Below, piece by piece: positions 1-64,000 of a stretch of DNA of 64,000 nucleotides. The notes beneath the pieces were generated by a model. It was not told where the DNA came from. It worked only from the letters and a program-made list of their open reading frames with translations, and did no database searches. Origin of the DNA: Stentor roeselii. Taxonomy: Eukaryota > Ciliophora > Heterotrichea > Heterotrichida > Stentoridae. Positions within the stretch are counted from its first letter, which is position 1. Every line of letters begins with the position of its first letter. The DNA is taken from the NCBI GenBank assembly GCA_006503475.1, contig RSEH01000051.1, forward strand, positions 62,001 through 126,000, given 5' to 3'. A program made the translations under genes and the position numbers.

Positions 1-475
1 TACGTTCCTCATCTTCAAAAAAGGATATGAGATGAAATTTAGCATCATTGCTATTAAACAAAATTCTATTGATAATTATTTTCTGGCCATTTCGTTCATA
101 TTCAATGATTTTAGCTGTTTGAAAATGTGATTTTTCGATGTAGGCTATGAACTTTTCAAAAATTTTGCTCATCAGAATTTCTTCATAAAGACCAGTTAAA
201 TCAATATATTGTTCTACTTGAATACGGGTGTTCATTCCTTGATTTAAGAGAGTATTGCTTCCAACTCTGTTGGTTTCAGTGTTTTTGCTGCTGAATGCCT
301 CAAGGTCAGCATGAATATCAAACCTATCATCTTTTTTGTGCATTAGAAGATTCTGAAAATCAAGACCATCAAGTTCAGGGAAAAAGTATTGAGTTTCCTG
401 GGTTTTAACCTGTGAATCAATTTGGTTTTCCTGGTTGATAATCAGAGGATTTTCTAGATTTTGATTATCTTCCAT
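1..475 (-). CDS. Hypothetical protein, N-terminal part (runs off left edge)
   Basis: An open frame starts at an ATG whose complement is 473-475 and stays open through base 1, giving the first 158 residues; the rest lies outside the window. The N-terminus is acidic and rich in Asn and Gln (MEDNQNLENPLI). From about residue 95 a more ordered helical segment begins (QYIDLTGLYEEI). I recognise no family. The third-position pattern resembles neighbouring genes, which supports coding. It is divergent from the MORN gene across a 401-bp gap. Reading frame is certain, function unknown. Confidence 0.75.
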   Translation of the reverse strand, partial: MEDNQNLENPLIINQENQIDSQVKTQETQYFFPELDGLDFQNLLMHKKDDRFDIHADLEAFSSKNTETNRVGSNTLLNQGMNTRIQVEQYIDLTGLYEEILMSKIFEKFIAYIEKSHFQTAKIIEYERNGQKIIINRILFNSNDAKFHLISFFEDEER

Positions 476-876
476 TAATATAGTGACTCAACCATCAAGA
501 TTAGGATAATTTTGGTTGATAAGGGAAAATATAATTACACTTATTGAATACTTGGAATAATTGTTTATTTGCTTAGGTAAAAGAAACGTAATTAACCTTA
601 AATTATCTAATCATTTGAATTGTGATAAATTATTTTGATTAAGATAAAAATCTGAATTCAACAATTGCTAGCCTGATTGTTCGAACAAAGTCAAACTATC
701 TGGCAGCTTATTATAGCAATTAGTGGCTATCCAGTAATATTATAGCCCAAGACAGTCCCGCAATCCAAAAATATATCTGATACCCATCTATCACTATCCA
801 CAAAAAACAATCCACTTAAGTCCTTTCCATTCAGAATAAAGTCTCCAAATCCCTAAAATTTAATTTGATAAATTAA
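476..876. promoter_or_regulatory. Divergent intergenic region
   Basis: This 401-bp AT-rich gap separates two divergent genes, so it should hold both promoters. I see no recognisable RNA gene. The + strand changes from G/T-rich (about 480-600) to strongly A/C-rich (720-860), one of the compositional flips described in the findings. A short palindrome, TTGTTCGAACAA, lies near 677; it lacks tRNA arm structure. Confidence 0.4.
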
Positions 877-1989
877 ATGGGAACAAACTGTTCATGTTTA
901 CGAGGAGGAATCTCCGAAGACAAGCAAGTACGCCTTGACCGTAATTTCGAGAAAGAACTAATAAAAGAGTACTCATCACGTCCATTCAAGTCCCAAGAAG
1001 ACCAAAACACGCTAATCAGCCTTCAATCTCTTCTGCGAGGTTACATCGACCGTCATTCCCTTCAAAAGTTGCGTTCAATCGAGTTCCAAGTCTCAAACCG
1101 TTCAAGACAATCAATCGAAAACACGCGTCAAGAGGTAATAGAAGACATTGTCCGAACAGAGTTAAGAGAAATTCCGCCTAATCTAGTCCCAGACTACACA
1201 ACAAGCATCACAAAAAGTGTAGAGCAGCGACTCGGTCCTTTTCCTATTCACGAGTCCAAGTCCGACAACATGACTCGCTTGAGGAGAGGTCCCGTTGAAA
1301 TGGAAAACGGCGCGATATATATCGGAGAATGGAACAACGATAATCAAAGACATGGAATTGGAATGCAGATCTGGAACGACGGGTCTAAATATGAAGGCGA
1401 GTGGCGATTTGATAAGGCTAATGGCAATGGAAGGCTCATTCATGCTGATGGAGATGTTTATGAAGGCAAGTGGAAAGATGATAAGGCTCATGGCTTTGGA
1501 GTTTATATTCACACTGATGGCGCTAGATATGAAGGCAACTGGGAAAATGATAAACAACATGGATACGGCGTTGAAACTTGGCAAGATGGCGCCAAGTATG
1601 AAGGAAATTATAAAGCTGGAAGAAAAGATGGAAAAGGAAAATTCAGCTGGGCTGATGGAAGTCTTTATGAAGGAATGTTCTTTGATAATAATATTGAAGG
1701 CACTGGAATTTACATGTGGAGTGATTCAAGGAAATATGAAGGCAGCTGGAAATGTAATAAAATGCATGGAAGAGGACTTTTTACTTGGAGTGATGGGAGA
1801 AGTTACTCAGGACTTTACGAAAATGATAAAAAACATGGACATGGAATTTTTAGCTGGCCTGATGGAAGAAAATATGACGGAATGTGGATGAATGGAAAAC
1901 AACATGGCCTGGGAACATATTCAAATACAGACGGGTCTATCAAAAAAGGAGAATGGCAAGAAGGTAAAAGATTGAGATGGATAAGTTAA
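877..1989 (+). CDS. MORN-repeat protein with N-terminal acylation signal and IQ-like motif
   Basis: This 370-residue protein begins MGTNCSC: Gly2 with Cys5 and Cys7 fits N-myristoylation plus palmitoylation, so membrane or cortical anchoring is inferred. An IQ-like segment (ISLQSLLRGYIDR) lies near residues 47-60. Residues about 150-365 carry about nine or ten MORN repeats (YEGEW, YEGKW, YEGNW, YEGSW, YDGMW with the G.G half-repeats between). MORN arrays in protists serve as membrane-associated scaffolds in cortex, basal body and cilium. The gene lies 29 bp upstream of a Rab gene on the same strand. MORN identity is secure, exact role is not. The first 400 bp use C-ending codons and the rest T-ending codons, a local composition shift. 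Confidence 0.92.
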   Translation: MGTNCSCLRGGISEDKQVRLDRNFEKELIKEYSSRPFKSQEDQNTLISLQSLLRGYIDRHSLQKLRSIEFQVSNRSRQSIENTRQEVIEDIVRTELREIPPNLVPDYTTSITKSVEQRLGPFPIHESKSDNMTRLRRGPVEMENGAIYIGEWNNDNQRHGIGMQIWNDGSKYEGEWRFDKANGNGRLIHADGDVYEGKWKDDKAHGFGVYIHTDGARYEGNWENDKQHGYGVETWQDGAKYEGNYKAGRKDGKGKFSWADGSLYEGMFFDNNIEGTGIYMWSDSRKYEGSWKCNKMHGRGLFTWSDGRSYSGLYENDKKHGHGIFSWPDGRKYDGMWMNGKQHGLGTYSNTDGSIKKGEWQEGKRLRWIS

Positions 1990-7200: not shown

Positions 7201-8539
7201 TGAAAAATAAAGAATACATGTTTTCTTTGAAATTCACTGAAAAAGTGCCTAAAGGAACCCAAGTTATAGTTTTCATTAACAGGCAAAAACTTGAAAGCAT
7301 TTCAGGTAGTACTTTAAAAAACTACACAATGATCGGCACTCTTGAGTCATTTTCCCCAGAAACTATCTCAGAAAGTACAGCAAAAGTGATTAATTCAACA
7401 GGAGCCGCAACAAAGACAGTAGTCACTTCTTCAATCGGAGCATCTCTCATGTCGAACCCATCAGCTGCCTGGGCTCTTTTAAACACAATCCAAATAATTA
7501 TATTCTTACCACTAGGATCAAACTCGTTATCTCAAACAATTCTAGATTTTTGTGATTCTTTTTCAGGTTACAACTTGTTGCCTAGTGTTTTTTCTTATTT
7601 TTTAAATGAAGATGATATGACAGAACCATATTTAGAAGCCAGGAAATACGGAATCTCGACTTCAGTCTTTTTAATGAATTTCGGTTCAACTCTTCTTCCT
7701 TTAATCGTCGGAATTTTTCTTTGGCCTTTGTTTTGGTTGCTGTCTTTGTGTAAAATCGGTAAAATTTCTTCGATAGCGAAAAAGAAGCTACTTGACTACA
7801 AGTACAGTTTTTTCATTCGGTTCTGGATTCAGGCCTACTTGGAAGCAGGGATATACTCAATAATCAATTTGCAATCAGTAAGAATTATGTAGCAAGTCAA
7901 TAATAAAGTCTCTGGGTATGTGAATTTGCTACTTTCTACTATCACTGTTGTAAATTTAAATAGATTGCTTTTGTCCTTTCACCGTTTTTTGCTTTTGTTG
8001 CATGTTATACTACGAATGAAATGATTGCTTCGGATAATGAAGAGTTTTCGATTAAGTTTGGAAGTTTTTTTTGTGAGTTTAAATGTGATAGAGGGTTTTT
8101 TAGTTCACAGTATTATACTCTTTACTTGGTTAGGAGATTGGGTTATGCTTTAAGTCAGATTTTTTTGAATTCTTTGGTTTTACTGCAGCAGGGACTTAAT
8201 ATTCTTGGAAGTGTTTTGTTGTTGCTTTATTTAGCTGTTTACCGACCTTTCAAAGAAACCTCTATCATGATTTCAACAACCGCAGGAGAAATAGCGATTT
8301 TAATTGTCCAAGTCATCACATTCGTATTTAATTTCTATCTGAGTACTAAACTGATAAAAATTCTCGAACTTACTATCATAGTATCAGTCCTTCTTGCAAT
8401 GCTTATTCAATTTTTAATCTCCATATACCTCTTTATCGGAGAAATGATCAACCTTTGGAAAATTCTTGAAAAAGATAGAAGTCTGAAGTTTGTCGAAGTT
8501 GCTGTAAAAGATCTGAAATTAAACAGCACTAATCATTGA
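4293..8539 (+). CDS. Giant cysteine-rich surface protein with multi-pass C-terminus (three exons)
   Basis: Exons 4293-7877, 7893-7949 and 7964-8539 give 1,405 residues. A signal peptide (about 1-18) is followed by a LamG/concanavalin-like domain (about 20-210), then a long furin/growth-factor-receptor-like cysteine array (about 230-880) in units of about 46 residues with recurring CxxC, CxTC, GCxC and GYY, then a Cys-poor extracellular segment. The last 350 residues hold about six hydrophobic spans (for example WALLNTIQIIIFLPL, LLPLIVGIFLWPLFWLL, and spans in exon 3). Large ciliate families share this Cys-rich ectodomain plus multi-pass tail; ligand and transport function are unknown. The two introns are 15 and 14 nt. 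Joining exon 2 to exon 3 needs a 14-nt removal, supported by a decayed paralogue on the opposite strand. Two relics of this family lie just downstream. Confidence 0.88.
7878..7892 (+). other. 15-nt spliceosomal intron
   Basis: GTAAGAATTATGTAG, phase 0. Its terminal TAG is an in-frame stop if retained. Removal keeps the frame into exon 2 (QSQVNNKVSGY). Confidence 0.85.
7950..7963 (+). other. Putative 14-nt spliceosomal intron
   Basis: GTAAATTTAAATAG. The upstream frame reaches a stop at 8022-8024 unless 14 (or 17) nt are removed here; removal joins STITV to IAFVLSPFFAF. A decayed paralogue (10777-10790, minus strand) has GTATTTTTAAAAAG at the same protein position, also 14 nt. A 17-nt alternative starting at 7947 would not be supported by the paralogue, which has TTT rather than GTT at that point. 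Confidence 0.7.
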
Positions 8540-12973: not shown

Positions 12974-13779
12974 ATTTATTATAGTGTATATTTAGTTTAA
13001 TAAATCTGCGTAAAGACTAAATGATTTTTTATAGGATTGATAAAATACCCACTTTCTTTGATATATGTATACAAATTGTAGTAATTTACAATGAATTCTA
13101 CTTATTAGTAATGTTTAATCAATTTAACTATAGAAATGAGAACTATTCAAATCATCATTAGTAACTATGATATTTTAAATAATCTTAGATTAAAATTCTG
13201 AATTTTTATCATTTGATAATTTTTCTCATGTGAGTAAGATCATCATGTCTATATCTGAGATGATCTAACTGCTTAAAATCTTAAAAGAAAATTTACTATT
13301 CAGACACGAATAAGTTTATATTCTATCTTTTTTTAGCCATCTATTCAATACAAGATCTATAAATATTCAAAAGAAATAAAATATTAAGCTAAATGAAAAA
13401 TCATCAACTTTTCCAGAGTATCTCTATCTTAATTTTCTTAGAGACTAATTAGATCGACCCTTTAGGAAATTTTTCAGCATATCTTGTTTGAAATAATTTC
13501 CGAAATGATTTAGCCAAATGAAACCCATAATAGTTACCAATTAGATTACTATAATTCTTCTATAATTTGCTAAACTATCTATATATAACAATAATTCTAA
13601 TAAATTTGGAACGGAATCCATAAAAAATCAGTTTTAAAATTCAAATTCTAAACATAAATAATATAAAGAAACCTAATCTAACGATAAATAATTTTAAAAC
13701 TCTTCATCAATCACACGAAATCCTCAATAAAACCACCCATCCTCATACTTTTAATAAAAAATTCCTAATAAAAAACCAA
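12974..13779. promoter_or_regulatory. Divergent intergenic region
   Basis: An 806-bp AT-rich gap between the divergent WD40 and P2X genes. I see no frame, RNA gene or repeat. The + strand changes from G/T-leaning near 13000 to strongly A/C-rich after about 13620. Confidence 0.4.
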
Positions 13780-18315: not shown

Positions 18316-19398
18316 ATGTCTACCTCTTTCCCGAAGAAAGTCGAAGTTTCTCCCAGTATGCTGGATCCAGAAAAACACTACAAAAATCAAGAAAACCAAA
18401 ACGAAACCGAAGTCTTCAAATCTTTATTCAACCTTTCTCAAACCCTAGAAAATCCCTCAGAATTTACTCAATGCATGAAAAAACTACTTCCATTGATTCC
18501 TAACGATCTTCACGCAGTACTAAACGTAGACGTGATATCTCTCCTTCTCCTTTCATCCTTTCCAATCTACTTCCATTCATTCAGTCTAATAAAGTCTCAT
18601 TATTCAAGCATCCTGGTCTTTTTATCCAGCATTGACCAAGTCTCTTACAACTTACTTCAAAACAAGACAAAAGACCTTCTTTCATTCAACTTTTCGTTTA
18701 TTTCCTCTTTATCCCCGAAGTCTTTATCAATGCAAGAACTTTCAATAATTTTCGTCTGCAGCGAGTTGTTTAACCTGGTCCAAAGGATCCCATTGGCCTT
18801 GGTGCTTGACGTTATTGGAAAAGTGAGCAGCTGGTCTCTGTTAAACGGTCTTCCCAGTGTTTTCGACTTGATTTGCAATAAAACAGCCCCATTTTTACCA
18901 AGTTATAGTCACAAAAAATTCACCCTTGTCCTTGACCTGGATGAAACTCTTGGACATTTAATTGAAGGAAATTTTTTAAAGAGACCTGGAGTCGAGATTT
19001 TTTTGAATGAAATGAGCAAAATTTATGAACTTGTACTTTTTACTGCTTCTTCTAAGGAATATGCTGATTCTGCTATGAAAATTGTTGATCCTGAAGGACT
19101 TGTGTTGCTTAGACTTTATAGAGAACATCTTGTGTCACTTGAAGTTAAAGACTTGCAGATGTTGGGAAGGGATCTTGATAAAGTTATCATTATTGATAAT
19201 TTTCCGAAAGCTTTTGAAAAGCAACCGAAAAATGGAATTCAGATTAAACCTTGGCTTGGTGATATGGAGGACCAGGAGTTGATGAAATTGATTTGGCCTT
19301 TAAGGGAAATTCCTTTTGTTCAAGGAAAGGGGCTTCTTGAATTGATTGAGATTATTAATGCTCGTATGGGTGTAAATAAGGTTAATTCATTTTATTAA
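18316..19398 (+). CDS. FCP1/SCP-like (NIF) protein phosphatase
   Basis: A 360-residue protein. The N-terminal 200 residues are helical, with no known domain. The C-terminal 150 residues form an HAD-type NIF domain: the catalytic motif is LVLDLDETLGHL (DxDxT with both Asp present), then KRPGVEIFLNEMS, YELVLFTASSKEYADS, KDLQMLGRDLDKVIIIDNFP (the DN motif) and IKPWLGDMED. This family (SCP, Dullard, FCP1) removes phosphate from serine in RNA polymerase II tails and other targets in an Mg-dependent reaction. The residue after DETL is Gly where V or I is usual, a mild variation. Start context is TATAAAAATG. Confidence 0.93.
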   Translation: MSTSFPKKVEVSPSMLDPEKHYKNQENQNETEVFKSLFNLSQTLENPSEFTQCMKKLLPLIPNDLHAVLNVDVISLLLLSSFPIYFHSFSLIKSHYSSILVFLSSIDQVSYNLLQNKTKDLLSFNFSFISSLSPKSLSMQELSIIFVCSELFNLVQRIPLALVLDVIGKVSSWSLLNGLPSVFDLICNKTAPFLPSYSHKKFTLVLDLDETLGHLIEGNFLKRPGVEIFLNEMSKIYELVLFTASSKEYADSAMKIVDPEGLVLLRLYREHLVSLEVKDLQMLGRDLDKVIIIDNFPKAFEKQPKNGIQIKPWLGDMEDQELMKLIWPLREIPFVQGKGLLELIEIINARMGVNKVNSFY

Positions 19399-19546
19399 GT
19401 ATTTTATGGATTAGAGAAGAAACTTATATGAATAATCTTAAATTCAATCTTTGTGAGAATTTTACAAATTTTGAAAAAATCTTATTTATAAAGACTCAAA
19501 ACTTTAATATATTTGGTTCAACTTTATTCTTGTCCACACCTGCCAA

Positions 19547-44956: not shown

Positions 44957-45352
44957 TTTTATGGTAGGGAGATAGGTTTGGAGTTGGTCATCTGTTGTAT
45001 CTGAACGATTACGACTTTGATTATTACTTAAAAGAACTTTCAATTGTTTAAGTGATTATATCTTGTCTTGAAAAAAAAGGAATAGATGTTAAATGACTCC
45101 AAGACTATTAAATATTCCTGAATAACATTAAAAAGCTAATTAGTTGAAGAAAAGCCTCATCCAAATCTACATCTTGTCTATATAAGTTCAAGTTTTATCA
45201 ATTGTTAACTTTACCCTCCTCAGACCAAGAGGAACTAAGTATTTTTCCAATATTTCAAAAAATACTTCAACCCTCAGAATTCCCATTTCCTCTAAATGTC
45301 CAGCCGATGACTCAATTCTTTTCCTATCCAAATATTTCATAAATGAAATACT
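44957..45352. promoter_or_regulatory. Divergent intergenic region
   Basis: A 396-bp AT-rich gap that should hold promoters of beta-COP (minus) and the gene at 45353 (plus). An open frame without ATG continues from beta-COP to 45043. Nothing else recognised. Confidence 0.4.
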
Positions 45353-46261
45353 ATGAATAAACTATTAATGCGAAAGTCAAAACAATTAATTTCCTACGAA
45401 GATGTCGATTTTTTATTTCAAGAACTTTATAAAACCTGGAACCTTCAAAATGTTCCTTCCCATCATCGAGAAACTTTTTCCAATAATTTGAAATTTTTGC
45501 CTCCTTCTTCAGTCGCTTTTACAATTGCCAAGGAAATCGATGACCTGGAATCTGGCTTGAACCCAATTCAGATGGTTTTAGATAGTATCTCAAAAAGAGA
45601 GTTTTTAATTGGAAAACTTCTTACATTTGATGGAAAAGCTAGGAATTTGAATAGGGACTTTGAAATAACTGAACTTGAAACTGCTTATTTTATACAGAAA
45701 CTTAGAAAAATCACTGCAGATGTATTGAAGAATATTGAGAAGTGGAAGAATATGTTCTTGGGAATTGAATGTGAGTTTTATTGGAATCAGATTTGTTATG
45801 TGGAAAAAGTTAAACATGATCTTGACTTTTTAAGGAAACTTGGAAGGTTTAAGTTTATGATGAGGGACCCGTTTTTCTTAAACACTGACTCAGAAAAAGT
45901 ATGTCTCAAAGCCAAAACTATAGTAAAAGCCAGCCCCAAAGACAAAAAAATCTTTAAAAAACTAGAAAAAATGCTAAACTATGGCCTTCCTGAAATAGGA
46001 AACTTCAAAGTCTCCAAAGCAGAAAAATTTGACCAGCAGTTTCAGAACGTTTTCGACGCTAAAATTTTAACAAAGGAAGAAAGTGAAGCTCTTCGAGAAA
46101 CCAATGAAATACTCTCTTGCATCATTTTTTCACTAACAGACGATTTACTAGAAAGTATCAGCTTCGACGTGCTCCTCGAGTTAAAAATTTACGATTCTCT
46201 TCTCGATCATCTTGTCGAGTCCGAAGCCAATTCAATTTTAAAAGAAAACGAAAACTCATAA
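45353..46261 (+). CDS. Hypothetical helical protein, 302 residues
   Basis: No family recognised. The chain is Lys/Glu/Leu-rich and mostly helical without strict heptads (FLFQELYKTWNLQNV; YFIQKLRKITADVLKNIEKW; FDVLLELKIYDSLLDHL). There is no signal peptide, membrane span or cysteine cluster. The frame is long and uses codons like its neighbours, so a real gene is likely. Met6 is an alternative start. Convergent with the ubiquitin-like gene across 57 bp. The + strand composition flips from G/T- to A/C-rich near 45875 inside it. Confidence 0.75.
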   Translation: MNKLLMRKSKQLISYEDVDFLFQELYKTWNLQNVPSHHRETFSNNLKFLPPSSVAFTIAKEIDDLESGLNPIQMVLDSISKREFLIGKLLTFDGKARNLNRDFEITELETAYFIQKLRKITADVLKNIEKWKNMFLGIECEFYWNQICYVEKVKHDLDFLRKLGRFKFMMRDPFFLNTDSEKVCLKAKTIVKASPKDKKIFKKLEKMLNYGLPEIGNFKVSKAEKFDQQFQNVFDAKILTKEESEALRETNEILSCIIFSLTDDLLESISFDVLLELKIYDSLLDHLVESEANSILKENENS

Positions 46262-46889: not shown

Positions 46890-47645
46890 ATGGGAGAAAA
46901 GTGCATCATTGATGACCCCAGTTTGGGAATTTTGACTGAAAATGATCATAGACTTGGATTGTGTCTTTGTGCTTATTGCACTTGTGGCAATCATGTTTGC
47001 ACCTCGAAGAATCTGTTTAATTCTCACCCTGTCAAGCTTAAATCTACTTATTTGACTTCGTTTTCGAAGGTCCCAGTCACTCGTCTGCTGAAAGAAACGA
47101 GAACTGTTTCTCCGATTATTAAAAAAACTTTTACGGGAATTTCGACTTATAAAAACGATTTCGTGAAACAAGACAGCACTCCCCACCCACGAGCGGCAGA
47201 ACGTATAAAAAAGCCAATGCTAACAGGAGTAATCCGTTCCAGTTACACAAAAGACTTCATCCCATTCAACCCAATAAGACAAGAGTCAATGTCCCCTCCA
47301 AACCCAAGACCCGACGGCAAGTCATTAAAATTCCAAAGTGAAACAACATACAAAAACACTTTCATTTCCCCTAACTCAGAACAAAAAACCAAAAGTTACT
47401 CAAAACTCGCTAAAAAAATCTTCATCGACCCAAACAGCTACCTCGAAACAAGCCACAAGCGAGACTTCCAACAAATAACTCCCCAAGAGACATGCAAGTC
47501 AAACCTTCAGTCATCTTTCACAATCCCGTCAAAAACCATTCCATTCCAATCCTCAAACCAGCGAGATTTCATCCTTCCCCAAGAAAGTGTGAAAAACCTT
47601 CCAAGACGATTGACAGCCCTTCGAGAGTACATAATTCATAAATAA
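46890..47645 (+). CDS. SAXO-family stabiliser of axonemal microtubules
   Basis: A 251-residue protein. The N-terminal cysteine motif CLCAYCTCGNHVC (residues 25-37) is the SAXO (FAM154) microtubule-binding Mn-type motif, which typically reads CxCxxCxCGxHxC. It is followed by spaced Mn repeats with a Y-x3-F core: STYLTSF, STYKNDF, SSYTKDF, TTYKNTF, SHKRDF and SNQRDF. SAXO proteins bind and stabilise doublet microtubules in cilia and basal bodies. It lies 34 bp upstream of CCDC96 on the same strand, and the neighbouring genes are also ciliary, so co-expression is plausible. Confidence 0.92.
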   Translation: MGEKCIIDDPSLGILTENDHRLGLCLCAYCTCGNHVCTSKNLFNSHPVKLKSTYLTSFSKVPVTRLLKETRTVSPIIKKTFTGISTYKNDFVKQDSTPHPRAAERIKKPMLTGVIRSSYTKDFIPFNPIRQESMSPPNPRPDGKSLKFQSETTYKNTFISPNSEQKTKSYSKLAKKIFIDPNSYLETSHKRDFQQITPQETCKSNLQSSFTIPSKTIPFQSSNQRDFILPQESVKNLPRRLTALREYIIHK

Positions 47646-49878: not shown

Positions 49879-49889
49879 TCTTTAAAGTG

Positions 49890-51812
49890 TTAAAAGCAAG
49901 AAATTTCGTAATCTAGTCTAAAATGGAACTTTTCTTTCATAAACTTCTGAATTTTTCTTGCTGACTTCTGTTGAATCTTTAAATGTTTTCTAAGTAAATA
50001 GCCTCTAAAGTACCTTTGGATGCAACAAGTTGATTTTTTGAGAACTTTAAAATATACTCTCAAAGGAAACATCCGAAATAATGACTGAATCTTCAAGATA
50101 GGCAAAATTAAAGAGCTGGATGAAGACTCACTTACTTCTTTTACTGTGCTGAGAGGCTTGATTTCATTCGCAGCTTTTTTAAGATGGCTTAATAAGAACT
50201 TTCTGATGAATTTTCTGAATTTTTCGTTTTTCTTGATAAAGAGCTTTTGAATGAACTTTTTGGCTTGACTTTGAATTACTCTAGCACTTAAGTGCTGGGC
50301 TTTTAGATGCTTTCTTTCGAGGATTGACCTGAAAAATGATTGGATTTTTATTGCTGAGTTTAAAATCTTTAAGAAGTCTTTTCTGGCTTTTTTACCTTTG
50401 AATATTGATTTAATGTGATTTATTGATTGCTTCATTTTCTTGAATCTTTTGAGATAAACCATTTTTTTACCGTTTGCTTGGATTTTCAAGATTTTATTTA
50501 AATAGTTCGTCTTTGCAAGTTTTAGTTGCCTTTTCATGACTTCAGTTACTTTATAAAATATTCTTGCAACACTTTCAAAAGCTTTGGTTAGGACATCATT
50601 CTTGATTTTATTTTGTAACTTATGGACTTTTTTTTTCTGAAAATTTCTCCAAGCTCTTTGAATAGTTTTAGCTGCAGTTTCTCTCTTAAATTTTATAAAG
50701 ATTTCTTTATTTGTATTGGCTTTGCTTTGAGCTTTCCTGTTTCCATGTTCAGTCTTAGACCTTTTCTTCTTATGAAATTTATTGCCTAGCGAAATAATTT
50801 TAACATCATTTCCTTTTTCTTGATTAGCAATCACAACCTTCTTTTCCTTCCTTCCTCTGCCCAAGGAGCCTTCCCTTTGATGCATTTTTTGTGTATATTT
50901 TCCATCATCCAACCCCTTGAACACAAATTCAAGTGTTTTTTTCTTCAAAGTATTCGCACTAGGGACTTTAGGGTCTTTTTTCTGCAAATCTTTTCCACAG
51001 AGTTCCTGAAAAAGCAGTAAAACTTTACTAAAAATAAGATTTCGACTTTGTTTGTTTTTTTCAGCGATTTCAAAAGCTTCTTTTGCTAAAAGTTTAGCAT
51101 CATTAAACTGTTCTAAATGAAGAGCTTCGATAATGAGATTGTAAAGAATGATGCTGGAAAATACAGGATTTGCCAAATTTTTCACTATTTGAAATGATTG
51201 TTGATGTAAATCCTGAGCTTTTAAGTGATTTTCTAGTTTGCACTCACAAAGTGCTAAGATATTGTAACAGCAGACCTGGTCGAAGGTGTCTTTTGAATTT
51301 TCCAACACTTTTGAGACGCATTCGACGCAGTCGGTTATTTTGTTTTTGATTAGATATATGATGGAAAGGTAAATGTAGTACATTAGCTTGCATTTTGTTC
51401 TTTCTGCATCTGGAAGACGGTACTTCTTGTTTGAAAGGGAGGCTAGGATCTTTAACAGCTCGCTGGCTGACTTCTTGTTGATGTTTAGAATTATTTGGGA
51501 GTATAGAGCTTCGAGGAATTGAAAGACGTATTTTCCCATCTATGTTTTTTTTACTTTGTCCGAGAGACTCTTGTAGGAAAATAGTTTAACCTGAATACTT
51601 TCCATCCAAGCTCTAAAAGCATCAGGTAAATTATGACTCTCCAAAGCAATAGCCTTCTTTTCAAGTTCTATATACCCCTTACCTAAAATCTCCAAAGAAG
51701 GTTTAACTCTAAACTCCTGTGCAACCTGTCCAAAATTAGTCAAGCCACTCAAAGAAAGAGGTTCCTGAGTAAAAGCCGACAACAAGAAATTAAGACAAGT
51801 TCTTTTGCTCAT
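49890..51812 (-). CDS. IQ-motif protein with helical TPR-like N-terminus (two exons)
   Basis: Exons 51555-51812 and 49890-51539 give 635 residues. The N-terminal 200 residues look like degenerate TPR helices (FDQVCCYNILALCECKLENHL; AKLLAKEAFEIAEKN). A basic linker follows. At least six IQ-type motifs then appear: KTIQRAWRNFQKKK, IKIQSFFRSILERK, RVIQSQAKKFIQK, LKIQSLFRMFPLRV, CCIQRYFRGYLLRK and RKIQKFMKEKF. IQ motifs bind calmodulin or centrin; in ciliates these serve basal bodies and contractile fibres. An ATG at 51833 in the same frame is possible, but it would overlap the divergent gene's start. The stop is 11 bp from the convergent CCDC96 stop. Confidence 0.88.
51540..51554 (-). other. 15-nt spliceosomal intron
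   Basis: On the minus strand GTAAAAAAAACATAG, phase 0, ending in an in-frame TAG. Removal joins SLSDK to MGKYVFQF, keeping one frame across the gene. Confidence 0.88.
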
Positions 51813-51826
51813 TATCGATAATATAA

Positions 51827-52342: not shown

Positions 52343-52361
52343 TTTTTCATTATTTAAATAA

Positions 52362-54332
52362 CTAAATTTGCATCAAGCTTTTTCTTTGTTTTTCTAAAAG
52401 TTCTTCAAGTTTCGTGATTTTTAGTTTTGAGATTTGAAGCTCTTGCATTACTTCACGAATTTTCTCGTCTTTCCGGGTTATCGTCGCTTTTACCCTTGCT
52501 TCTATTGCTTCGAATTCTTCTCCTTCTTTTTGAGCGATTTGAGAGAGTTTTTCTTCGTATTTTTCTTTGATGAGTTCCATTTGTTCTTTTGTAATTTCTA
52601 TTTCTTGTTGCAAAATAAGGGATTTTTTTCTTTCTTCTCTTCGGACTTCTTCGATGAGCTCGCCTTGGCCGTCTTTGTAAGAATCGATTTTTAGTTCGAG
52701 GTTTAAAATCTCTTCTTTGAGATGCAGTTTTTCACCTTCTAGCTTTGAGATTAGAAGCTCTTGGTCTTGGATTTTTTTTGCTAAGGTCTGAAAGTTTTCG
52801 GTCTGGTTTTTTCTGACTGAGTTGGATTTTTCTACCTTTTCTTTTAAATTTTCAACGATTTTTTCGTATTCGTCGATTTGGAGCTGATGCTTTTCAGTTA
52901 AAACTTTTAGCTTGGCTTCTGTTTCTTTGTCGACTTTTTTCTTGTAAGTTACCTTTTCTTCACTTAGTTTTGAGATGATAAGTTTTATTTCTTTGTCCCT
53001 ATTTAAAGCAAGGTCATTTCTGATCATCTCTTTTTTTTCATCAAGTTCCTTGTTGATCCTGACAACCTGCGAGTTGATCCACTCTTCTTTCTCAAATGCA
53101 AGTTCTTGTTTTAGTTTTTTAAGTTTATTTTCATGTTTAACTTCAACTTCTTCTAGAATACTTTGATGCCTTCTTGTGAGCTCTTCAATTTTTTCAGAGT
53201 ATTCACTTTGAAGATTTTTAAGTTTCGAGACATTAGATGTTTCTTCCCTAATGCGCACTTCATGAATTCTTTGTTTTTCTTGAGCAGACTCATCACTCCA
53301 TTTTTTTCTCATATTGAGAAGTTCCTCTTCTTGTTTCACATGAAGTTCTCGAAGACGTCCTTGGTAACTTTCTCTTTCTTTTTCTAAAGTCTCATCATAT
53401 CTCGCTTTGAGGTCATCTTTGATATCTTGAAGTTTTGATTCATAATCATGGTCTAATTGTTGTTTATATCTTTTCATTTCAATTTCTTGCTCATCTTTCA
53501 TTTTTTCAATATTTCTCTTATTTTCCGCTAAAATTCTCATAATTTCTGGTTCCAGCCCTTTTGTAGTATTTTCTTTGATTTCTTTAGTTTTTTCTTTCAT
53601 CCAGGTGTTCCTTTTATTTTTTTCAGAAGTGACCCAAGAATCTCTTTGTTTTTTTAGCTCCTTATCAGCCTTTTCCCTGACATCCTGAAGATTTTTCAAA
53701 TGTTTTCCCTCCATTTCTTTGATTTTCTGACTCAATTCAGTGAGTTGGGAAATTCTTTGTTGTTTTTCCATCAAGAGCTGTTCAATAAAATTCATATTTT
53801 TTATTCCAAGTTCCTCAAATTCAAGTCTTTGTTTTTCAAGTGCCAGATCAAGTGATTTTTTGTTTTCCTCTTCTTTAGCGGCAGCTTCTTTTTTGATTTT
53901 TTGAATCACGACTTTTAAAGAGTCAATCGTTTTCAAGGCTTCTTCCAGTTCGAGTCTGTAATTGACAAGCGCTGCCTGAGATATGAAAGAATTATTTTCT
54001 TGTTTTGACTTCGACTTGGCCTCTGTTTCGTCTAAGTACTGGAAAAGCTCTGCCGCTCTTGACTGAATTGATGAGTTTAAATTGAAGGAATTAGTTGAGT
54101 CGTCGATTTGAGTAAGTTTTGAAGGCTTTTCAGCGAAGGACTCTTCGAATCGAAATATTTGTGAATGGATTCGTTTTTGTTTTTTGAGGATTTGACACCT
54201 CCACCATCTCTGGATTTTTTTCACTGAGTCTGTGAAACCGATTGAAGAAAAAGGCTTTGATGATGATCTTGGATTTGATCGCTGGATTGGGTGATGCGGT
54301 TTCAGGAATGGAGCATGGGCTGGTCTGTACAT
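52362..54332 (-). CDS. CEP131: CEP131/AZI1-like centriolar satellite and basal-body protein
   Basis: A 656-residue protein. Near the N-terminus an IQ-like helix occurs (VKKIQRWWRCQILKKQKR, about 35-52). Coiled coil fills the rest. A CEP131 signature is clear: WMKEKTKEIKENTTKGLEPEI (about residue 247-267), then HEVRIREETSNVSKLKN and the basic C-terminal block ALNRDKEIKLIISKLSEEK, which correspond to the human WVxxKTKxIKEVTxRGLEPEIQ and GRDKEIELVIHRLE. CEP131 localises to basal bodies and transition zone and is needed for cilium assembly. It lies in a ciliary neighbourhood with SAXO and CCDC96. Length is shorter than human (about 1,080) mainly in the N-terminal region. Confidence 0.92.
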   Translation of the reverse strand: MYRPAHAPFLKPHHPIQRSNPRSSSKPFSSIGFTDSVKKIQRWWRCQILKKQKRIHSQIFRFEESFAEKPSKLTQIDDSTNSFNLNSSIQSRAAELFQYLDETEAKSKSKQENNSFISQAALVNYRLELEEALKTIDSLKVVIQKIKKEAAAKEEENKKSLDLALEKQRLEFEELGIKNMNFIEQLLMEKQQRISQLTELSQKIKEMEGKHLKNLQDVREKADKELKKQRDSWVTSEKNKRNTWMKEKTKEIKENTTKGLEPEIMRILAENKRNIEKMKDEQEIEMKRYKQQLDHDYESKLQDIKDDLKARYDETLEKERESYQGRLRELHVKQEEELLNMRKKWSDESAQEKQRIHEVRIREETSNVSKLKNLQSEYSEKIEELTRRHQSILEEVEVKHENKLKKLKQELAFEKEEWINSQVVRINKELDEKKEMIRNDLALNRDKEIKLIISKLSEEKVTYKKKVDKETEAKLKVLTEKHQLQIDEYEKIVENLKEKVEKSNSVRKNQTENFQTLAKKIQDQELLISKLEGEKLHLKEEILNLELKIDSYKDGQGELIEEVRREERKKSLILQQEIEITKEQMELIKEKYEEKLSQIAQKEGEEFEAIEARVKATITRKDEKIREVMQELQISKLKITKLEELLEKQRKSLMQI

Positions 54333-54427
54333 GTTTGATTATAAAAATGGTCGCTTTCATAGACCAATCTACAAACATTGAACACCATTCTTACCTTTAA
54401 ACTTTAATAAACTATCAACTATACTTC

Positions 54428-59719: not shown

Positions 59720-62608
59720 CTAAATACTTCCTTGTTTCTGTTTGAGTAACAAAAGCTCATTTTCCAAGATCTTCACCTTGCTGATCTTCTTGCTGAGTTC
59801 CAAATCAAGTTCTTCAATTTTCTGCTGTTTTACTTCATTTTCCCTACAAATAATCTCGAAAGCTTCCGTGATTTTTCCAGTGACTCCTTCACTCTGAAGG
59901 TCTTTTTGCAAAGGTAAAGAAAAGATGCAGGTGTTAATTTCTTGAATGACATTAAGACTTTCCTTTAATTTATCTTCCAACTTCTCAACTTTATCCTGAA
60001 CATTTGAGTCATTTCCAGTCGACTTGCTGATATTTTCAATCTTTTTGCTAAGACTTTCTATTTTTTCACTTTTTTTTCTAAGTTCTTCCCTGAGTTCAAA
60101 GTTCTGTTCTTTAAGTTTATTATTTTCATCCTTCATCATCGAGTGAAGTTTAATATTTTGAGTGAAACCAGCTGAAGACGGTTCCTTATTTTTTTCAAGG
60201 TCTTCTAAACGACTTCTAAGTTCTTCATTTTCATTTCTAAAGTCATTTTCTCTATCCTGCATTTTTTTGAGTTCCTCAATCATTTCATTACGTGACTGGA
60301 CAGAAATTTCCAGTTCTTCTTTTACCTTCTCAAACCTTTCTTCAAGTTCGCGATTTTTATAAGAAGTGTCGTCGAGGTCAGTTTTAAGTTTAAGATTTTC
60401 TTCAATCTGAGTTTTGCTTGTCCTAACCGAGAGTTTTTCAGTGAGTTCATTGATTTTTTTATCCTTGTGAACAATCTGCTGGCTGAACTCTATAAACTGA
60501 GTCGATAAAAATTCATTTTCAGCGATCATTGTTTCGATCTCATTTTGAAGTTCTTCAATTTTATTATCTTTGCTCATATTTTCTTCTCTGATTTTTTCCA
60601 TTTCTTCCTCAAGTTTGAAGTTTTCTGTTTCGTACTTCGCAAGGTTCTCGTTTTCTTCTCTTAAAGAAGCGACTTTCGTTTCTAAGTATTTAACTTTTTC
60701 TTCTAGTTCTTTACTTGAGTCAGCTTCTTGTAAAAATCTTTGAAACTGCTCATGTTGTCTCTCCATGTCGGTTATTGAGTTAAGTCCAGAAGAGTTTAAA
60801 GTTGAGAACCTGGAAGATGATGACTCTTCAATCAACTGACTTTCAGTCAAGGCGTTGAGTTGATCTTCTAACATCAAAACGCGACTTTTTTCAACTTCCA
60901 GAGATTTTTTCAGTTCAATGATGGTTTTTTTTGCAGTGTTGAGCTCTTGTGCGCCGTCAGTTTTGGCTTTTTTTGAGTACTCTTCAAGTAAAATATGCAA
61001 TTGTTCTCTTTCACTGACACTTTTTCTTAAACTAACTTGAAGCTTTTCAGTGAAGTCAAGATTTTCTTTAAGTCTTGCCCTGACTGAAACTTCTGCTTCT
61101 TGCATTTCTTTTTCCAATGAATTAATCTGGGTCTTGAGTTTCACATTTTCAGCTTTCAAGATAGCGACAGCAGGGTGGTTCTCATTTTCCCTTCTCAAGA
61201 CTTCAACTTCTTCCTTAAGTGTTAAAATCACCTTTTTTTCTTCAATAGTTTCATTTTTCTGTAATTTTTTCAGTGCCTCGTCTTTAGTTTTTATAAGTTT
61301 TCTATCAGCGCTGATCTTTTTCTCACACTTTTCAAGTGCAGCGTTGAGTTCTTCGATGTAAGAGTCACGGTCGCCAAGTTCTTGTTTCAAGGCAGACTCG
61401 CTTTGAAGGCGGATTCGAAGATTTTGCTCTAAAAGGCCTTCAACGTTTTTAATGCGTTCACTGAAGTCAATTGAGAAGCCTTGTCCAGAGTCTTGTTGAT
61501 TTTTTAAAATATTTTTAAGTCTTTTGATTTCTTCTCTCAGTTCTGAGACAGTGCCAGTTGTGTCTTCATTGATAATCGCGCGATTTTTTACCAGTTTTGC
61601 CCTTTCAGCGAATCTAAGAGTTGAAAGAGTTTCTCCATAGCACATGAGAGAAGGAGAGATATTTGCAATGATGCAAGTTTTGGAATTCCCTCCTAAAGAG
61701 TCTTTAAGAAGAAAAGTGAGTTTTGAGTCTCTGTAAGGAACATGCCGTTGTTTCCCGTCAGCGATTTCTACTAAAGAGTTAATAACATTGCCCAATGACG
61801 AGAGACTTTTATTGATCATACTCGCTTCTTTCAGTCGTTCTCCGAAGGTCTCAGCCATTTTCTGCCTCTCTGACCCTGCCAAGTCAATCAAATGAAAAAA
61901 TGAACTTTTGTAGTTAATGATGTCGTCTTTTTTCTCTTTACTCTCAACTTGAAGGGTGAAGACTGAATGTGATCTGGAACTTTCAATGTTCATTGAAGTG
62001 GAACCAATATGACGATTTTTTATCCCTTTTTCTAATAGTTTAAAAGTATCGTCGAAACTTGTCACAGTCTCCTGATGCAAAGCTTCAACATATGCGCCTT
62101 TTTTTATGTCTTCTCGAATTTGAAGGTTTCGAAGCTCTGGTGCGAGAAGGTCGTTGATTGTTTCGTTGTAGATCTCGAGGAAAGAACCTTTTATCAAGTA
62201 TTGGATTGATGAGTTCTTTTTTAACTCGCGCTTTATACTTGTGAAGATAAATTCTAGGCAACGTGGAAGGATTCCTCGAGACTTGAAGTTTAGGTTTGTC
62301 TCCATGAAACCTCCCATTATTGTGTAGGTCTTACCTGAACCGGTCTGCCCATATGCGAAAATAGAGCCGTTGTAACCGCATAGGATGCTACTTGCTATTG
62401 GCTTTCCTATGTTGTCGAATAGGTCGTCTTGCGTCATGTCCATGTCGAATACAAAGTCGTAGGCGAAGGTCTTTGTTGAGGAATTTATTGAGATACCAAC
62501 TGAGTTCTGGCCTCTATTAACTTGTATGCACTTTTTGTTCTCTGTGCTATGAAGTTCACGAGCGTTAAGTGGTCGAACACGGATTGCCACCTGTATATTG
62601 TCAGACAT
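59720..62608 (-). CDS. Kinesin-12-like (KIF15-type) motor
   Basis: A 962-residue motor. The head at residues 3-345 starts NIQVAIRVRPLNARE, with P-loop GQTGSGKTYTI, switch I NIESSRSHSVF, switch II DLAGSERQKMAETFGERLKEA, and YRDSKLTFLLKDSLGGNSKTC. The KMAETFGERLKEASMINKSL region and LGNVINSLVEIADGKQRHVPY match kinesin-12/KIF15 (which reads TxGxRLKEAxxINKSLSxLGxVIxxLVD), rather than kinesin-1. A long parallel coiled coil follows to the C-terminus, ending in leucine-rich heptads. KIF15 acts on spindle microtubules; in ciliates it may serve cortical or spindle arrays. Start context is CTATAAATG at 62608. Confidence 0.93.
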   Translation of the reverse strand: MSDNIQVAIRVRPLNARELHSTENKKCIQVNRGQNSVGISINSSTKTFAYDFVFDMDMTQDDLFDNIGKPIASSILCGYNGSIFAYGQTGSGKTYTIMGGFMETNLNFKSRGILPRCLEFIFTSIKRELKKNSSIQYLIKGSFLEIYNETINDLLAPELRNLQIREDIKKGAYVEALHQETVTSFDDTFKLLEKGIKNRHIGSTSMNIESSRSHSVFTLQVESKEKKDDIINYKSSFFHLIDLAGSERQKMAETFGERLKEASMINKSLSSLGNVINSLVEIADGKQRHVPYRDSKLTFLLKDSLGGNSKTCIIANISPSLMCYGETLSTLRFAERAKLVKNRAIINEDTTGTVSELREEIKRLKNILKNQQDSGQGFSIDFSERIKNVEGLLEQNLRIRLQSESALKQELGDRDSYIEELNAALEKCEKKISADRKLIKTKDEALKKLQKNETIEEKKVILTLKEEVEVLRRENENHPAVAILKAENVKLKTQINSLEKEMQEAEVSVRARLKENLDFTEKLQVSLRKSVSEREQLHILLEEYSKKAKTDGAQELNTAKKTIIELKKSLEVEKSRVLMLEDQLNALTESQLIEESSSSRFSTLNSSGLNSITDMERQHEQFQRFLQEADSSKELEEKVKYLETKVASLREENENLAKYETENFKLEEEMEKIREENMSKDNKIEELQNEIETMIAENEFLSTQFIEFSQQIVHKDKKINELTEKLSVRTSKTQIEENLKLKTDLDDTSYKNRELEERFEKVKEELEISVQSRNEMIEELKKMQDRENDFRNENEELRSRLEDLEKNKEPSSAGFTQNIKLHSMMKDENNKLKEQNFELREELRKKSEKIESLSKKIENISKSTGNDSNVQDKVEKLEDKLKESLNVIQEINTCIFSLPLQKDLQSEGVTGKITEAFEIICRENEVKQQKIEELDLELSKKISKVKILENELLLLKQKQGSI

Positions 62609-62737
62609 TTATAGCAAATGATTCAAATTAGGTATATTTAATTTTAGTTTAGACTGATAATCCTCCAAATCAAATCCAGGTTTCAAAAACACCTCAATAA
62701 AAAATCCATAATCACCATCTCAAAATTCTCTGTAAAT

Positions 62738-64000
62738 ATGCAAGACTTAAATAGAAACAGTTTTCACCCAAAAGACCTGAAAATCGTTTCAAGAACGCCA
62801 ACCCGGAACAAAGACACACAACTAACAAGGCCCAAATTAACCGACCTTCAAAGTCTCAACAATTTCACAGGCAACATCTACAAAATCCGAAGTGTTCCTC
62901 TTCTACCCGACTCAAAATACGTTGCCCGAACCTGTCCAAAGAAGATCCTAACAGACAAAGAGCGTCTTTACGAGGAAAACCTGAACCTAAAGCAGATGTA
63001 CAACTACATCAACGAGGAAAACCTGAAAATGAGGACAAAAATCCAGTTATTAGAAAAAAACGCTGAAAGTCGCAGTCAAGAAGTGAACAGCTCGTCAAAT
63101 AAAAGTTATTCTCTCGTCGATAGCCTTAAAAACGCCATCAAGGACTTGAGAAGTGAAGCCAGGGCGAAAGACAAAGAAATAGAAGACATGAAGAGATATA
63201 TCAGGTACACCAAAATGCAAGAACTTGAAGCTGAAGTCCTTCAACTGCAAAGTGAATGCACCAGACTCAAACTTATCATTGACGATATCATCAAACAAAG
63301 GGAACTACTACCTGATGGCCTTGAAGCTTATAACAACTTGAAAAATGAATTAAAAAGTGTAAAAAATCAACTTAAGCAAAAGGACCTTCGAGAAGAACAG
63401 CAAAGTTTGAGAATTGAAGAACTTGAAAAAAAAAACGATTTTCAAGAAAATTATGAAAAATTCGATGAACTGGTTGAGAGACTTCAGCAGGACCTCAGTG
63501 AAAAAAATCAAAAAATCCAGGAACTTCAAGAAAAAAACAGGATTTTAAATGAAAAGTTAAAAAATCTTCCTGAAAAAAAAGGAAAAAACACTCAAACTTC
63601 TCTAGACTCTTCAAAACCTCCAGTTCTTTTCACGAAAATTCAAGATTTTCTAACGTCTCATCACATTTCTTCAGCTGCCTGGGTGAAGTCAATAACAAAA
63701 AACGACTTTCTCATCTTTCAAGAGTTCACCAGTGCAGTCATCCAAGACCTTCCCGAGTCAAATGACCAGGAAATCCAAGTCTTCTGGAAAAAATACTCGA
63801 AAGACGGCAAAATGAGCAGTCAGGTCCTTATTTCTCTTTATTCCGACGAGGAAATCGAAAAGTTGTCGATTTCAGAAATCTTTGAAACGTTTAAGGCCCA
63901 GGCGACACTTGCAGGGGTGAGCGATCTTCAAGACTACCTCGAAAACGAGCTGCCAGGTCCTGAATTGTCAGAAGTTGACTTGTTCCAGCTCTGTTCGAAG
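62738..64000 (+). CDS. Coiled-coil protein, N-terminal part (runs off right edge)
   Basis: An open frame of 421 codons from ATG at 62738 to the last base; the gene continues outside the window. The first 75 residues are basic and disordered, then a long coiled coil (NLKQMYNYINEENLKMRTK; about 85-280), a short basic spacer, and a helical domain from about residue 300 (KIQDFLTSHHISSAAWVKSI; QVLISLYSDEEIEKLSISEIF) that resembles a pair of degenerate EF-hand-like helices. No firm family. Similar architectures occur in ciliary and centriolar proteins. Divergent from the kinesin-12 gene across 129 bp. Confidence 0.8.
   Translation, partial: MQDLNRNSFHPKDLKIVSRTPTRNKDTQLTRPKLTDLQSLNNFTGNIYKIRSVPLLPDSKYVARTCPKKILTDKERLYEENLNLKQMYNYINEENLKMRTKIQLLEKNAESRSQEVNSSSNKSYSLVDSLKNAIKDLRSEARAKDKEIEDMKRYIRYTKMQELEAEVLQLQSECTRLKLIIDDIIKQRELLPDGLEAYNNLKNELKSVKNQLKQKDLREEQQSLRIEELEKKNDFQENYEKFDELVERLQQDLSEKNQKIQELQEKNRILNEKLKNLPEKKGKNTQTSLDSSKPPVLFTKIQDFLTSHHISSAAWVKSITKNDFLIFQEFTSAVIQDLPESNDQEIQVFWKKYSKDGKMSSQVLISLYSDEEIEKLSISEIFETFKAQATLAGVSDLQDYLENELPGPELSEVDLFQLCSK

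What the first reader, a model, noticed from the sequence alone, without database searches (positions are those of the whole stretch)
1..64000. Sawtooth amino/keto strand skew with sharp, same-polarity flips
Along the + strand the sequence drifts from A+C-rich to G+T-rich over about 1-3 kb and then flips back within about 50-150 bp. By direct count: 31561-31620 is G+T 41/60 while 32041-32100 is A+C 36/60; 33601-33660 is G+T 38/60 while 33721-33780 is A+C 42/60; G is 22/60 at 20161-20220 and 3/60 at 20401-20460; G is 36/120 at 54241-54360 and 2/60 at 54361-54420. By eye, flips of the same polarity lie near 700, 2920, 4240, 6750, 8240, 14780, 15680, 16590, 19530, 20320, 23460, 24620, 26070, 29400, 31980, 33705, 34610, 38000, 39265, 41790, 43625, 45875, 47165, 48500, 51585, 54360, 55240, 59635 and 62655. 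They occur inside plus genes, inside minus genes and between genes, so transcription or codon use of single genes does not explain them. A GT-to-AC step looks the same on both strands, as expected for a point of bidirectional symmetry. One model is closely spaced replication origins with an A/C-rich leading strand; I recall an A/C leading-strand bias being reported in budding yeast. Another is fixed fork-convergence sites.
Basis: partly seen in the sequence, partly recalled or inferred. Interest (0 to 1): 0.82.

Follow-up and report, generated by a model that had tools for sequence, protein, structure and literature searches.

The report
Kilobase strand-skew sawtooth in ciliate DNA
In this ciliate genome the two DNA strands swap their preferred letters abruptly about once per kilobase, even in the middle of genes, as if a strand-specific mutation process radiates about 600 bases from closely spaced fixed sites, a pattern I did not find described.

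Summary
The window is probably macronuclear DNA of a heterotrich ciliate (15-nt introns, CCCTAACA telomeres). After removing amino-acid content, silent codon choice swings between A+C and G+T on the + strand, with sharp GT-to-AC flips about every 1 kb and smoother returns. Flips called from 4-fold and intergenic sites predict independent 2-fold sites: C fraction 0.627 on one side, 0.230 on the other. Polarity exceeds 120 of 120 random-reversal controls; an E. coli control shows nothing. The wave runs unchanged across neighbouring genes on opposite strands, so coding or transcription of the called genes is not its main cause; a weaker gene-end gradient also exists. The tilt fits a tract of about 600 bp on each side of a flip better than linear drift, which weakens the dense-origin model. 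Best guess, unproven: recurrent germline breaks expose 3' single strands that lose A and C, the polarity reported at human meiotic breaks. Replication origins, germline bidirectional transcription and IES junctions remain open. No motif was found at coding flips.

The parts
1..64000 (.). Whole window: polar amino/keto wave of silent and intergenic sites, 54 called flips (all scores)
8180..8300 (.). GT-to-AC flip inside a plus gene, z 5.7
13590..13710 (.). GT-to-AC flip upstream of the gene at 13780, z 4.7
19355..19475 (.). GT-to-AC flip in a convergent gap, z 6.4
20247..20367 (.). GT-to-AC flip inside a minus gene, z 6.5
25958..26078 (.). GT-to-AC flip inside a plus gene, z 5.8
28425..28545 (.). 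GT-to-AC flip between genes, z 5.1
29356..29476 (.). GT-to-AC flip inside a TPR gene (plus), z 5.7
31927..32047 (.). GT-to-AC flip inside a protein kinase gene (plus), z 7.3; the step is silent (total 0.156 = amino-acid part -0.035 + silent part 0.190)
33635..33755 (.). GT-to-AC flip inside an LRR gene (plus), z 6.8
36811..36931 (.). GT-to-AC flip inside a CD36-family gene (minus), z 5.6
37950..38070 (.). second GT-to-AC flip inside the same CD36-family gene, z 4.8
43573..43693 (.). GT-to-AC flip inside a coatomer beta gene (minus), z 5.6
45010..45130 (.). GT-to-AC flip in a divergent gap, z 5.2
45815..45935 (.). GT-to-AC flip inside a plus gene, z 5.7
47092..47212 (.). GT-to-AC flip inside a plus gene, z 7.3
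51525..51645 (.). GT-to-AC flip inside a minus gene near its 5' end, z 7.2
54283..54403 (.). GT-to-AC flip at the border of a minus gene, z 5.3
62598..62718 (.). GT-to-AC flip in a divergent gap, z 6.3
59720..62608 (-). Kinesin gene lying in a long domain (flips at 59628 and 62658): tilt strong in the outer 400 bp on each side, mostly near zero between (two isolated 200-bp bins at -1.7 and -2.4)

Best explanation
Shown: a strand-specific composition pressure acts on the DNA itself. It favours G and T on the + strand for about 600 bp left of each flip and A and C for about 600 bp right of it, whatever the gene strand. It moves silent sites, intergenic DNA and, weakly, amino-acid choice. Inferred: it is heritable mutation pressure centred on recurrent, closely spaced sites in the germline (micronuclear) genome. 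Most likely, though only moderately so, these are break sites whose 5' ends are resected. The exposed 3' single strand (the + strand on the left, the - strand on the right) loses C and A by deamination-like or translesion changes. Over time this leaves a GT-to-AC flip at the site and a tract as long as the resected stretch.
For: DNA level: autocorrelation across opposite-strand genes resembles that within genes. Flips (z>3) occur in convergent (12 of 41), divergent (12 of 40) and tandem (32 of 96) gaps of at most 800 bp alike. Mutation-like: 4-fold and 2-fold silent sites agree (NNY C fraction 0.627 against 0.230), and amino acids are dragged along (80 of 112 flips, +0.081 +/- 0.014 per codon). 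Finite tract: a 600-bp tract with tilt 0.44-0.47 fits domains of 1.0-1.5 kb, 1.5-2.2 kb and 1.8 kb or more (the last two overlap); gain over linear drift is 126, 12 and 42 log units, with bootstrap 5-95% ranges above zero for the first and third. [quoted passage not shown] I read this as the same polarity (PMC7615360, passages). A Spo11-type (TP6A_N) domain is present (1 hit, E 3.9e-18).
Against: No break map exists here. The intergenic-only track does not support the polarity under segmentation: the flip polarity scored higher at s=0.4 (134.8 against 94.6) but lower at 0.6, 0.8 and 1.0 (64.5/110.5, -123.4/66.4, -361.2/-22.1), although cross-validated intergenic profiles do show the flip at about a third of the coding amplitude. 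No GC rise at flips, which biased gene conversion at recombination hotspots might give (4-fold GC 0.28 at flips, 0.29-0.32 farther out). No 2-, 4-, 5- or 6-mer stands out at coding flips. A site every ~1 kb is far denser than meiotic hotspots I know of. Long domains are few (33 of 374 at 2.2 kb or more), and in full segmentation the best exponential length was 900-1400 bp, not 600. Undetected weak flips could mimic an empty middle. Two new contigs alone gave a non-significant intragenic asymmetry (0.175 +/- 0.15, 34 genes). The amino acids favoured on the G+T side include A, E and R, which are not G+T-rich. The yeast leading-strand bias gives the same polarity.
Confidence: 0.38

Rival explanations
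1. Very closely spaced replication origins with an A+C-rich leading strand, as in yeasts.
For: [quoted passage not shown] cerevisiae, K. lactis and C. albicans (PMC3459929, passages). Skew jumps are the known mark of origins. The signal ignores gene strand.
Against: Drift between flips is not linear: fixed tracts fit better in domains of 1.0-1.5 kb and of 1.8 kb or more, and in domains over 2.2 kb the tilt is small in the middle (20 or 32 domains). Spacing of flips with z>3 has a median of 1275 bp, far below any origin spacing I know of. Only 58 of 190 flips with z>2.5 lie between genes.
Confidence: 0.2
2. Germline bidirectional transcription (the genome-wide micronuclear transcription that feeds scnRNAs in other ciliates, recalled) starting at fixed sites and running about 600 nt, with transcription-linked mutation.
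For: It would ignore somatic gene strand, give short tracts, and 12 Piwi-domain matches suggest a small-RNA machinery.
Against: Deamination of the non-template strand or transcription-coupled repair would make the transcribed sense strand G+T-rich (recalled), the opposite polarity for divergent transcription. No transcript data.
Confidence: 0.13
3. Flips mark internal eliminated sequences (IESs) that sit in the germline copy at these points; repeated excision or repair in the germline, or germline chromatin at the IES, drives the asymmetric mutation. This names an anchor rather than a chemistry and can combine with the break model.
For: Density and gene share resemble Blepharisma: about 40,000 IESs in a 41-Mbp genome, about 70% intragenic with genes covering 77% (PMC9942856 and PMC9942806, passages). 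Here flips with z>2.5 come once per 1.35 kb, 132 of 190 intragenic. Sites are sharp and unrelated to gene orientation.
Against: No TA enrichment at 101 coding flips: posterior-weighted count 6.38; TA-anchored simulations expect 6.99 +/- 0.32 to 8.09 +/- 0.40, random ones 6.17 +/- 0.33 to 6.51 +/- 0.24. A PiggyBac-domain search gave no candidate, but its controls were silent too. Excision takes place in the developing soma, whose mutations are not inherited (recalled). No germline sequence is held; in the assembly, 43000-52500 had no second copy longer than about 340 bp.
Confidence: 0.2
4. Only a gene-end gradient: coding strands run from A+C-rich at the 5' end to G+T-rich at the 3' end, which gives same-polarity resets at every gene border in any orientation.
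For: The gradient exists (4-fold A+C 0.53 to 0.42, negative slope in 88 of 134 genes; held-out 68 of 98 genes; in the window alone 18 of 33, p=0.31). 64% of the summed cubed raw step (w=200) comes from short gaps that are 7% of positions.
Against: Silent-site asymmetry persists inside genes after trimming 80 codons from each end (0.45 +/- 0.11). 132 of 190 flips are intragenic, with no peak at the start codon. Opposite-strand continuity contradicts a coding-strand cause.
Confidence: 0.04

Closest known systems
Replication-origin skew jumps and N-shaped skew domains (human; budding yeasts)
   Same: Strand-symmetric sharp jump with decline between jumps; in yeasts the leading strand is A+C-enriched, the same polarity
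   Different: Spacing about 1 kb, far below known origin spacing (recalled); finite tracts of about 600 bp; very large amplitude at silent sites; mostly inside genes
Strand-asymmetric mutation at human meiotic break hotspots (Hinch et al. 2023, PMC7615360)
   Same: Loss of C and A on one strand on one side and of G and T on the other, as I read the passages; finite flanks
   Different: There it is a mutation excess measured at mapped hotspots; here it is an equilibrium composition, about once per kb, with no break map
Opposite GC skews at 5' and 3' ends of fungal genes (McLean and Tirosh 2011, PMC3315797)
   Same: C-rich 5' and G-rich 3' ends of genes, also at silent sites and in flanks; the gene-level gradient here resembles it
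   Different: The main wave here ignores gene strand, flips inside genes and involves A/T as well as C/G
Subtelomeric skew of gene-sized ciliate chromosomes (Nyctotherus, PMC2633312)
   Same: Symmetric bias at both 5' ends of a DNA unit (passages)
   Different: There it is purine skew over about 130 nt at telomeres; here silent purine content hardly varies (sd ratio 1.07) and units are internal

Membership tests
Replication-origin skew jump | Sharp strand-symmetric jump of fixed polarity | tested here: met
Replication-origin skew jump | Near-linear change between neighbouring jumps, scaling with their distance | tested here: not met
   fixed tract beats linear by 26 (0.6-1.0 kb), 126 (1.0-1.5 kb), 42 (1.8 kb and over) log units; 12, not significant, at 1.5-2.2 kb
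Replication-origin skew jump | Jump coincides with a mapped origin | not testable with these tools
   no origin data
Gene-end skew (McLean and Tirosh) | Mean coding-strand gradient from 5' to 3' | tested here: met
   (held-out and pooled genes; not significant in the window's 33 genes for all sites)
Gene-end skew (McLean and Tirosh) | Skew follows the coding strand, so it changes sign between opposite-strand neighbours | tested here: not met
   + strand correlation stays positive across opposite strands at short lags
Break-resection mutation asymmetry | C and A lost on the strand whose 3' end points to the break, on both sides | tested here: met
   (composition, not mutation counts)
Break-resection mutation asymmetry | Finite tract independent of neighbouring sites | tested here: met
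   with the caveat of few long domains and of the longer exponential length
Break-resection mutation asymmetry | Recurrent breaks at the sites | not testable with these tools
   no break map
Break-resection mutation asymmetry | GC rise at the site from biased conversion (expected, not strictly defining) | tested here: not met
IES junctions | TA dinucleotide left at the junction | tested here: inconclusive
   no enrichment; power moderate, leaning against
IES junctions | Germline insert present at the site | not testable with these tools
   no germline sequence; one search found no second copy of 43000-52500 longer than about 340 bp
Heterotrich ciliate macronuclear DNA | 15-nt introns and CCCTAACA telomeres (traits recalled) | tested here: met

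The most novel reading that the evidence does not exclude
The germline genome of this ciliate carries a dense grid of recurrent break or excision points, about one per kilobase and mostly inside genes. Each leaves a bidirectional single-strand mutation scar of about 600 bp, strong enough to set codon and even amino-acid use, so the germline break map can be read from the somatic sequence alone.
Probability: 0.28. Interest if true: 0.92.

Novelty: new variant of a known kind. Interest (0 to 1): 0.8.

Why it matters
Silent-site composition is usually treated as uniform or gene-directed within a gene. Here it reverses strand preference within about 100 bp in mid-exon and shifts amino acids, so codon-usage, dN/dS and gene-finding analyses in such genomes would mislead. 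If the flips are germline break, origin or excision sites, a plain somatic assembly gives a genome-wide map of them at a model-based precision of about 15 bp (median posterior sd 14-15 bp for flips with z>3), which makes germline processes in a hard-to-culture group directly testable.

Tried and rejected
Gene-border-only model: rejected as sole cause. Amino-acid composition as cause: its part of the intragenic steps is symmetric (-0.014 +/- 0.057 against 0.456 +/- 0.081 for the silent part, 145 genes, w=50 codons). Purine or GC waves: absent or small. Square-wave model from inverted segments: argued against by polarity. The Markov-1 null alone was too weak, so codon shuffles, codon-order reversal, parity cross-validation and an E. 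coli K-12 control (34 of 45 annotated CDS in 50 kb) were added. In one search the intergenic-only track favoured the flip polarity only at s=0.4 and the opposite at 0.6, 0.8 and 1.0. Motif search: a first scan without a match for gene content raised TAAA, TTAA, ACTTA and a few rare 6- and 7-mers; with posterior weights, TA and TTAA are raised at intergenic flips, but there the flip is placed by the same letters, which favours T|A by construction; nothing stands out at coding flips. Paralogue test: mixed over 46 pairs; a 1553-aa pair at 50% identity showed no shared pattern (r 0.01, null 0.02 +/- 0.16), so flips appear to move in deep time. Fetched coatomer-beta-like paralogues L030 and L031 were too diverged to use (42-49% and 32-37% protein identity in the aligned parts). 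New contigs C100 and C250 alone gave intragenic asymmetry of the right sign but not significant (0.175 +/- 0.15, 34 genes), although segmentation favoured the polarity in both (190 against 138, 66 against -17). Literature: searches were search listings, most of them capped (one found no paper); none of the listed titles or abstract starts describes such a pattern in ciliates.
Full report
What the DNA is. The window is positions 62001-126000 of contig C365 in a 44.4-Mb, 522-contig assembly. Genes are dense: coding fraction 0.84 in C365 and C1, 0.76 in C100 and 0.66 in C250 by my gene model. ORFs end in TAA, TAG and TGA, and genes carry 15- or 16-nt introns with GT...AG ends. At least 12 contigs in a capped list begin or end in CCCTAACA repeats. 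Tiny introns and this repeat are, from recall, traits of heterotrich ciliates; the species was not identified. Protein families among 20 ORFs scanned include kinesins, a CFAP184-type ciliary protein, MORN and LRR repeats, a channel with a cyclic-nucleotide-binding domain and coatomer beta.

The quoted counts. Seven of eight are exact and one is off by one. The raw A+C step distribution over +/-200 bp is skewed in the window (0.44 against 0 +/- 0.05 in 60 Markov-1 sequences) and in 192 kb of other sequence (0.28 +/- 0.07 at w=200, 0.31 +/- 0.06 at w=150). Purine and GC content show no significant skew there. With a count threshold alone, flips and reverse crossings are about equally frequent; the asymmetry lies in sharpness.

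A gene-level part. In 98 held-out genes the coding strand falls from about 0.53 A+C at the 5' end to about 0.50 at the 3' end, with a negative slope in 68 of 98 (p=3e-5); in the window alone it is 18 of 33 (p=0.31). The change is silent: 4-fold A+C 0.532 to 0.418, negative slope in 88 of 134 genes, amino-acid part flat. Short gaps, 7% of positions, supply 64% of the summed cubed raw step at w=200. This part resembles the fungal gene-end skew (PMC3315797, abstract and first part of Results read).

A larger part that is not gene-level. For each codon I took A+C minus the mean for its amino acid, signed to the + strand, and plain A+C between genes. Printed along the window this track shows a vivid sawtooth through genes of both strands. 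Inside genes the silent part of the step is asymmetric (0.456 +/- 0.081, 145 genes, w=50 codons) and the amino-acid part is not (-0.014 +/- 0.057). The result holds without intron-bearing genes (0.36 +/- 0.11), after trimming 80 codons from each end (0.45 +/- 0.11), on each strand (0.50 +/- 0.10; 0.38 +/- 0.14) and in held-out genes (0.43 +/- 0.09). Variation of the silent A+C track is 1.62 times that of shuffled codons; GC 1.22, purine 1.07. The same code on 34 of 45 annotated CDS in 50 kb of E. coli K-12 gives ratios 0.92-0.97 and no significant asymmetry.

Segmentation. A sawtooth model with sharp GT-to-AC flips scores 1475 log units in 256 kb (s=0.6); the opposite polarity scores 1151. Three codon shuffles score -97 to -122 and -24 to -60 for the two polarities, and codon-order reversal swaps them (875 against 1386). 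Intergenic DNA alone favours the flip polarity only at s=0.4 and the opposite at s=0.6, 0.8 and 1.0. All four contigs favour the flip polarity (937/710, 555/443, 190/138, 66/-17). With coding sites only and 120 random per-gene reversals, the observed excess is 433 against -46 +/- 103, maximum 177. With flips placed from even codons and read from odd ones, and the reverse, the tilt in coding DNA goes from -0.15 to +0.19 between the two central 30-bp bins and reaches about +/-0.6 within about 150 bp; between genes it reaches about +/-0.2; the reverse crossing is smoother (a coarser version is, whose script stopped with an error at a later line after printing these profiles).

Independence and size. 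Flips called from 4-fold and intergenic sites only (162 with z>2.5) were read at 2-fold sites. The C fraction of NNY codons is 0.627 where the coding strand lies on the A+C side and 0.230 on the G+T side (TAY 0.767 and 0.204). The A fraction of NNR is 0.743 and 0.581, strong for CAR, TTR and AGR, weak for AAR and absent for GAR. Amino acids move on the whole the same way: V, G, A, E and F are commoner on the G+T side and S, P, T and Q on the A+C side; 80 of 112 flips, +0.081 +/- 0.014 A+C per codon. GC content stays nearly flat.

It belongs to the DNA, not to the gene. With the mean gene profile removed, the + strand tilt of neighbouring genes on opposite strands correlates 0.179 +/- 0.020 below 150 bp, 0.085 at 150-300 bp and -0.113 at 450-600 bp; within one gene the values are 0.263, 0.094 and -0.114. 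A coding-strand cause predicts the opposite sign across opposite strands. Gaps of at most 800 bp hold a flip with z>3 at similar rates whether convergent (12 of 41), divergent (12 of 40) or tandem (32 of 96), so promoters and terminators of the called genes are not the anchors. Flips are nevertheless enriched between genes (58 of 190 with z>2.5, 31.5 expected) and reverse crossings avoid gaps (4 of 157, 25.8 expected). Inside genes flips run at 0.39-0.92 per kb over 11 distance bins from the start codon, lowest next to it (from the counts).

Shape. Among 374 domains between flips with z>2 (both parities), read at held-out sites, the best rectangular tract is 600 bp for lengths of 1.0-1.5, 1.5-2.2, 1.8 and over, and 2.2 kb and over (tilt 0.42-0.47), and 400 bp (tilt 0.40) for 0.6-1.0 kb. 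Gain over linear drift: 26 (5-95% 4 to 49) in 111 domains of 0.6-1.0 kb; 126 (84 to 164) in 144 of 1.0-1.5 kb; 12 (-7 to 30) in 60 of 1.5-2.2 kb; 42 (10 to 81) in 54 of 1.8 kb and over; 30 (3 to 61) in 33 of 2.2 kb and over. In domains over 2.2 kb the tilt is small, within about 0.3 of zero, from about 600 bp inward (20 or 32 domains by segmentation). Contrary hint: in full segmentation an exponential decay of 900-1400 bp scored best (1948, against 1753 for linear). Missed flips could also empty the middle of long domains.

Mechanism. The polarity, loss of C and A on the strand whose 3' end points at the site, on both sides, is what Hinch et al., as I read the passages, report in the 2-kb flanks of human meiotic break hotspots, where resection leaves single strands (PMC7615360). 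It is also the polarity of yeast origins, where the leading strand is A+C-enriched (PMC3459929, abstract and passages). The finite tract and the roughly 1-kb density speak for the former and against efficient origins, but do not settle it. Transcription from the site outward would, by known deamination and repair asymmetries (recalled), give the opposite polarity. Density and gene share resemble IESs in Blepharisma (about 40,000 in 41 Mbp, about 70% intragenic; PMC9942856 and PMC9942806, passages). However, the test for TA at the flip leans against (6.38; random 6.2-6.5, TA-anchored 7.0-8.1), and somatic excision cannot itself leave heritable mutations. The genome has a Spo11-type domain and 12 Piwi matches; the PiggyBac search was silent in its controls too.

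Limits. 336 kb of 44.4 Mb from four contigs was segmented. Gene models are my own, without transcripts; one WD40 ORF was added by hand, and ORFs of 300 aa or more missed by the model were added by rule and 7 of 207 incomplete calls were dropped. No second eukaryote, no germline sequence and no functional map were available. That the pattern is undescribed rests on search listings 31, 32, 36, 39, 40, 62, 63, 68 and 69 (mostly capped) over an open-access library only.

Noticed in passing
69 called introns in C365, C1, C100, C250: 9 of 69 called introns lie within 60 bp of a flip with z>3 against 5.3% for random coding positions, yet their median distance is larger than random (542 against 450 bp); some may be miscalls near flips.
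   Followed up: partly
L032-L043: The first 200 bp inward from 12 telomeres are A+C-rich on the strand reading inward (0.541 +/- 0.010, 11 of 12 above 0.5), then about 0.49; a few still hold a short telomere remnant. Like a short one-sided flip.
   Followed up: partly
2-fold codons of the 200 genes in C365, C1, C100, C250: The A/G side effect depends strongly on context: CAR, TTR and AGR large, AAR small, GAR none; the C/T effect is weaker after G (AGY, TGY). A possible fingerprint of the mutator.
   Followed up: no
window 55426-57663 and 59720-62608: Two kinesin genes, the second with a called 15-nt intron at 62320-62334; their silent patterns correlate at aligned codons (r 0.76, null -0.31 +/- 0.45).
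   Followed up: partly
window 8540-11044 and 57664-58800: Long stretches with no gene called by the model in an otherwise compact window (one 150-aa ORF at 9501-9953).
   Followed up: no
G000, 12 places: Twelve Piwi-domain matches with long open frames, an expanded small-RNA machinery.
   Followed up: no
C1:71030-78490: Local cluster of three related genes at 60-68% protein identity in mixed orientation.
   Followed up: no
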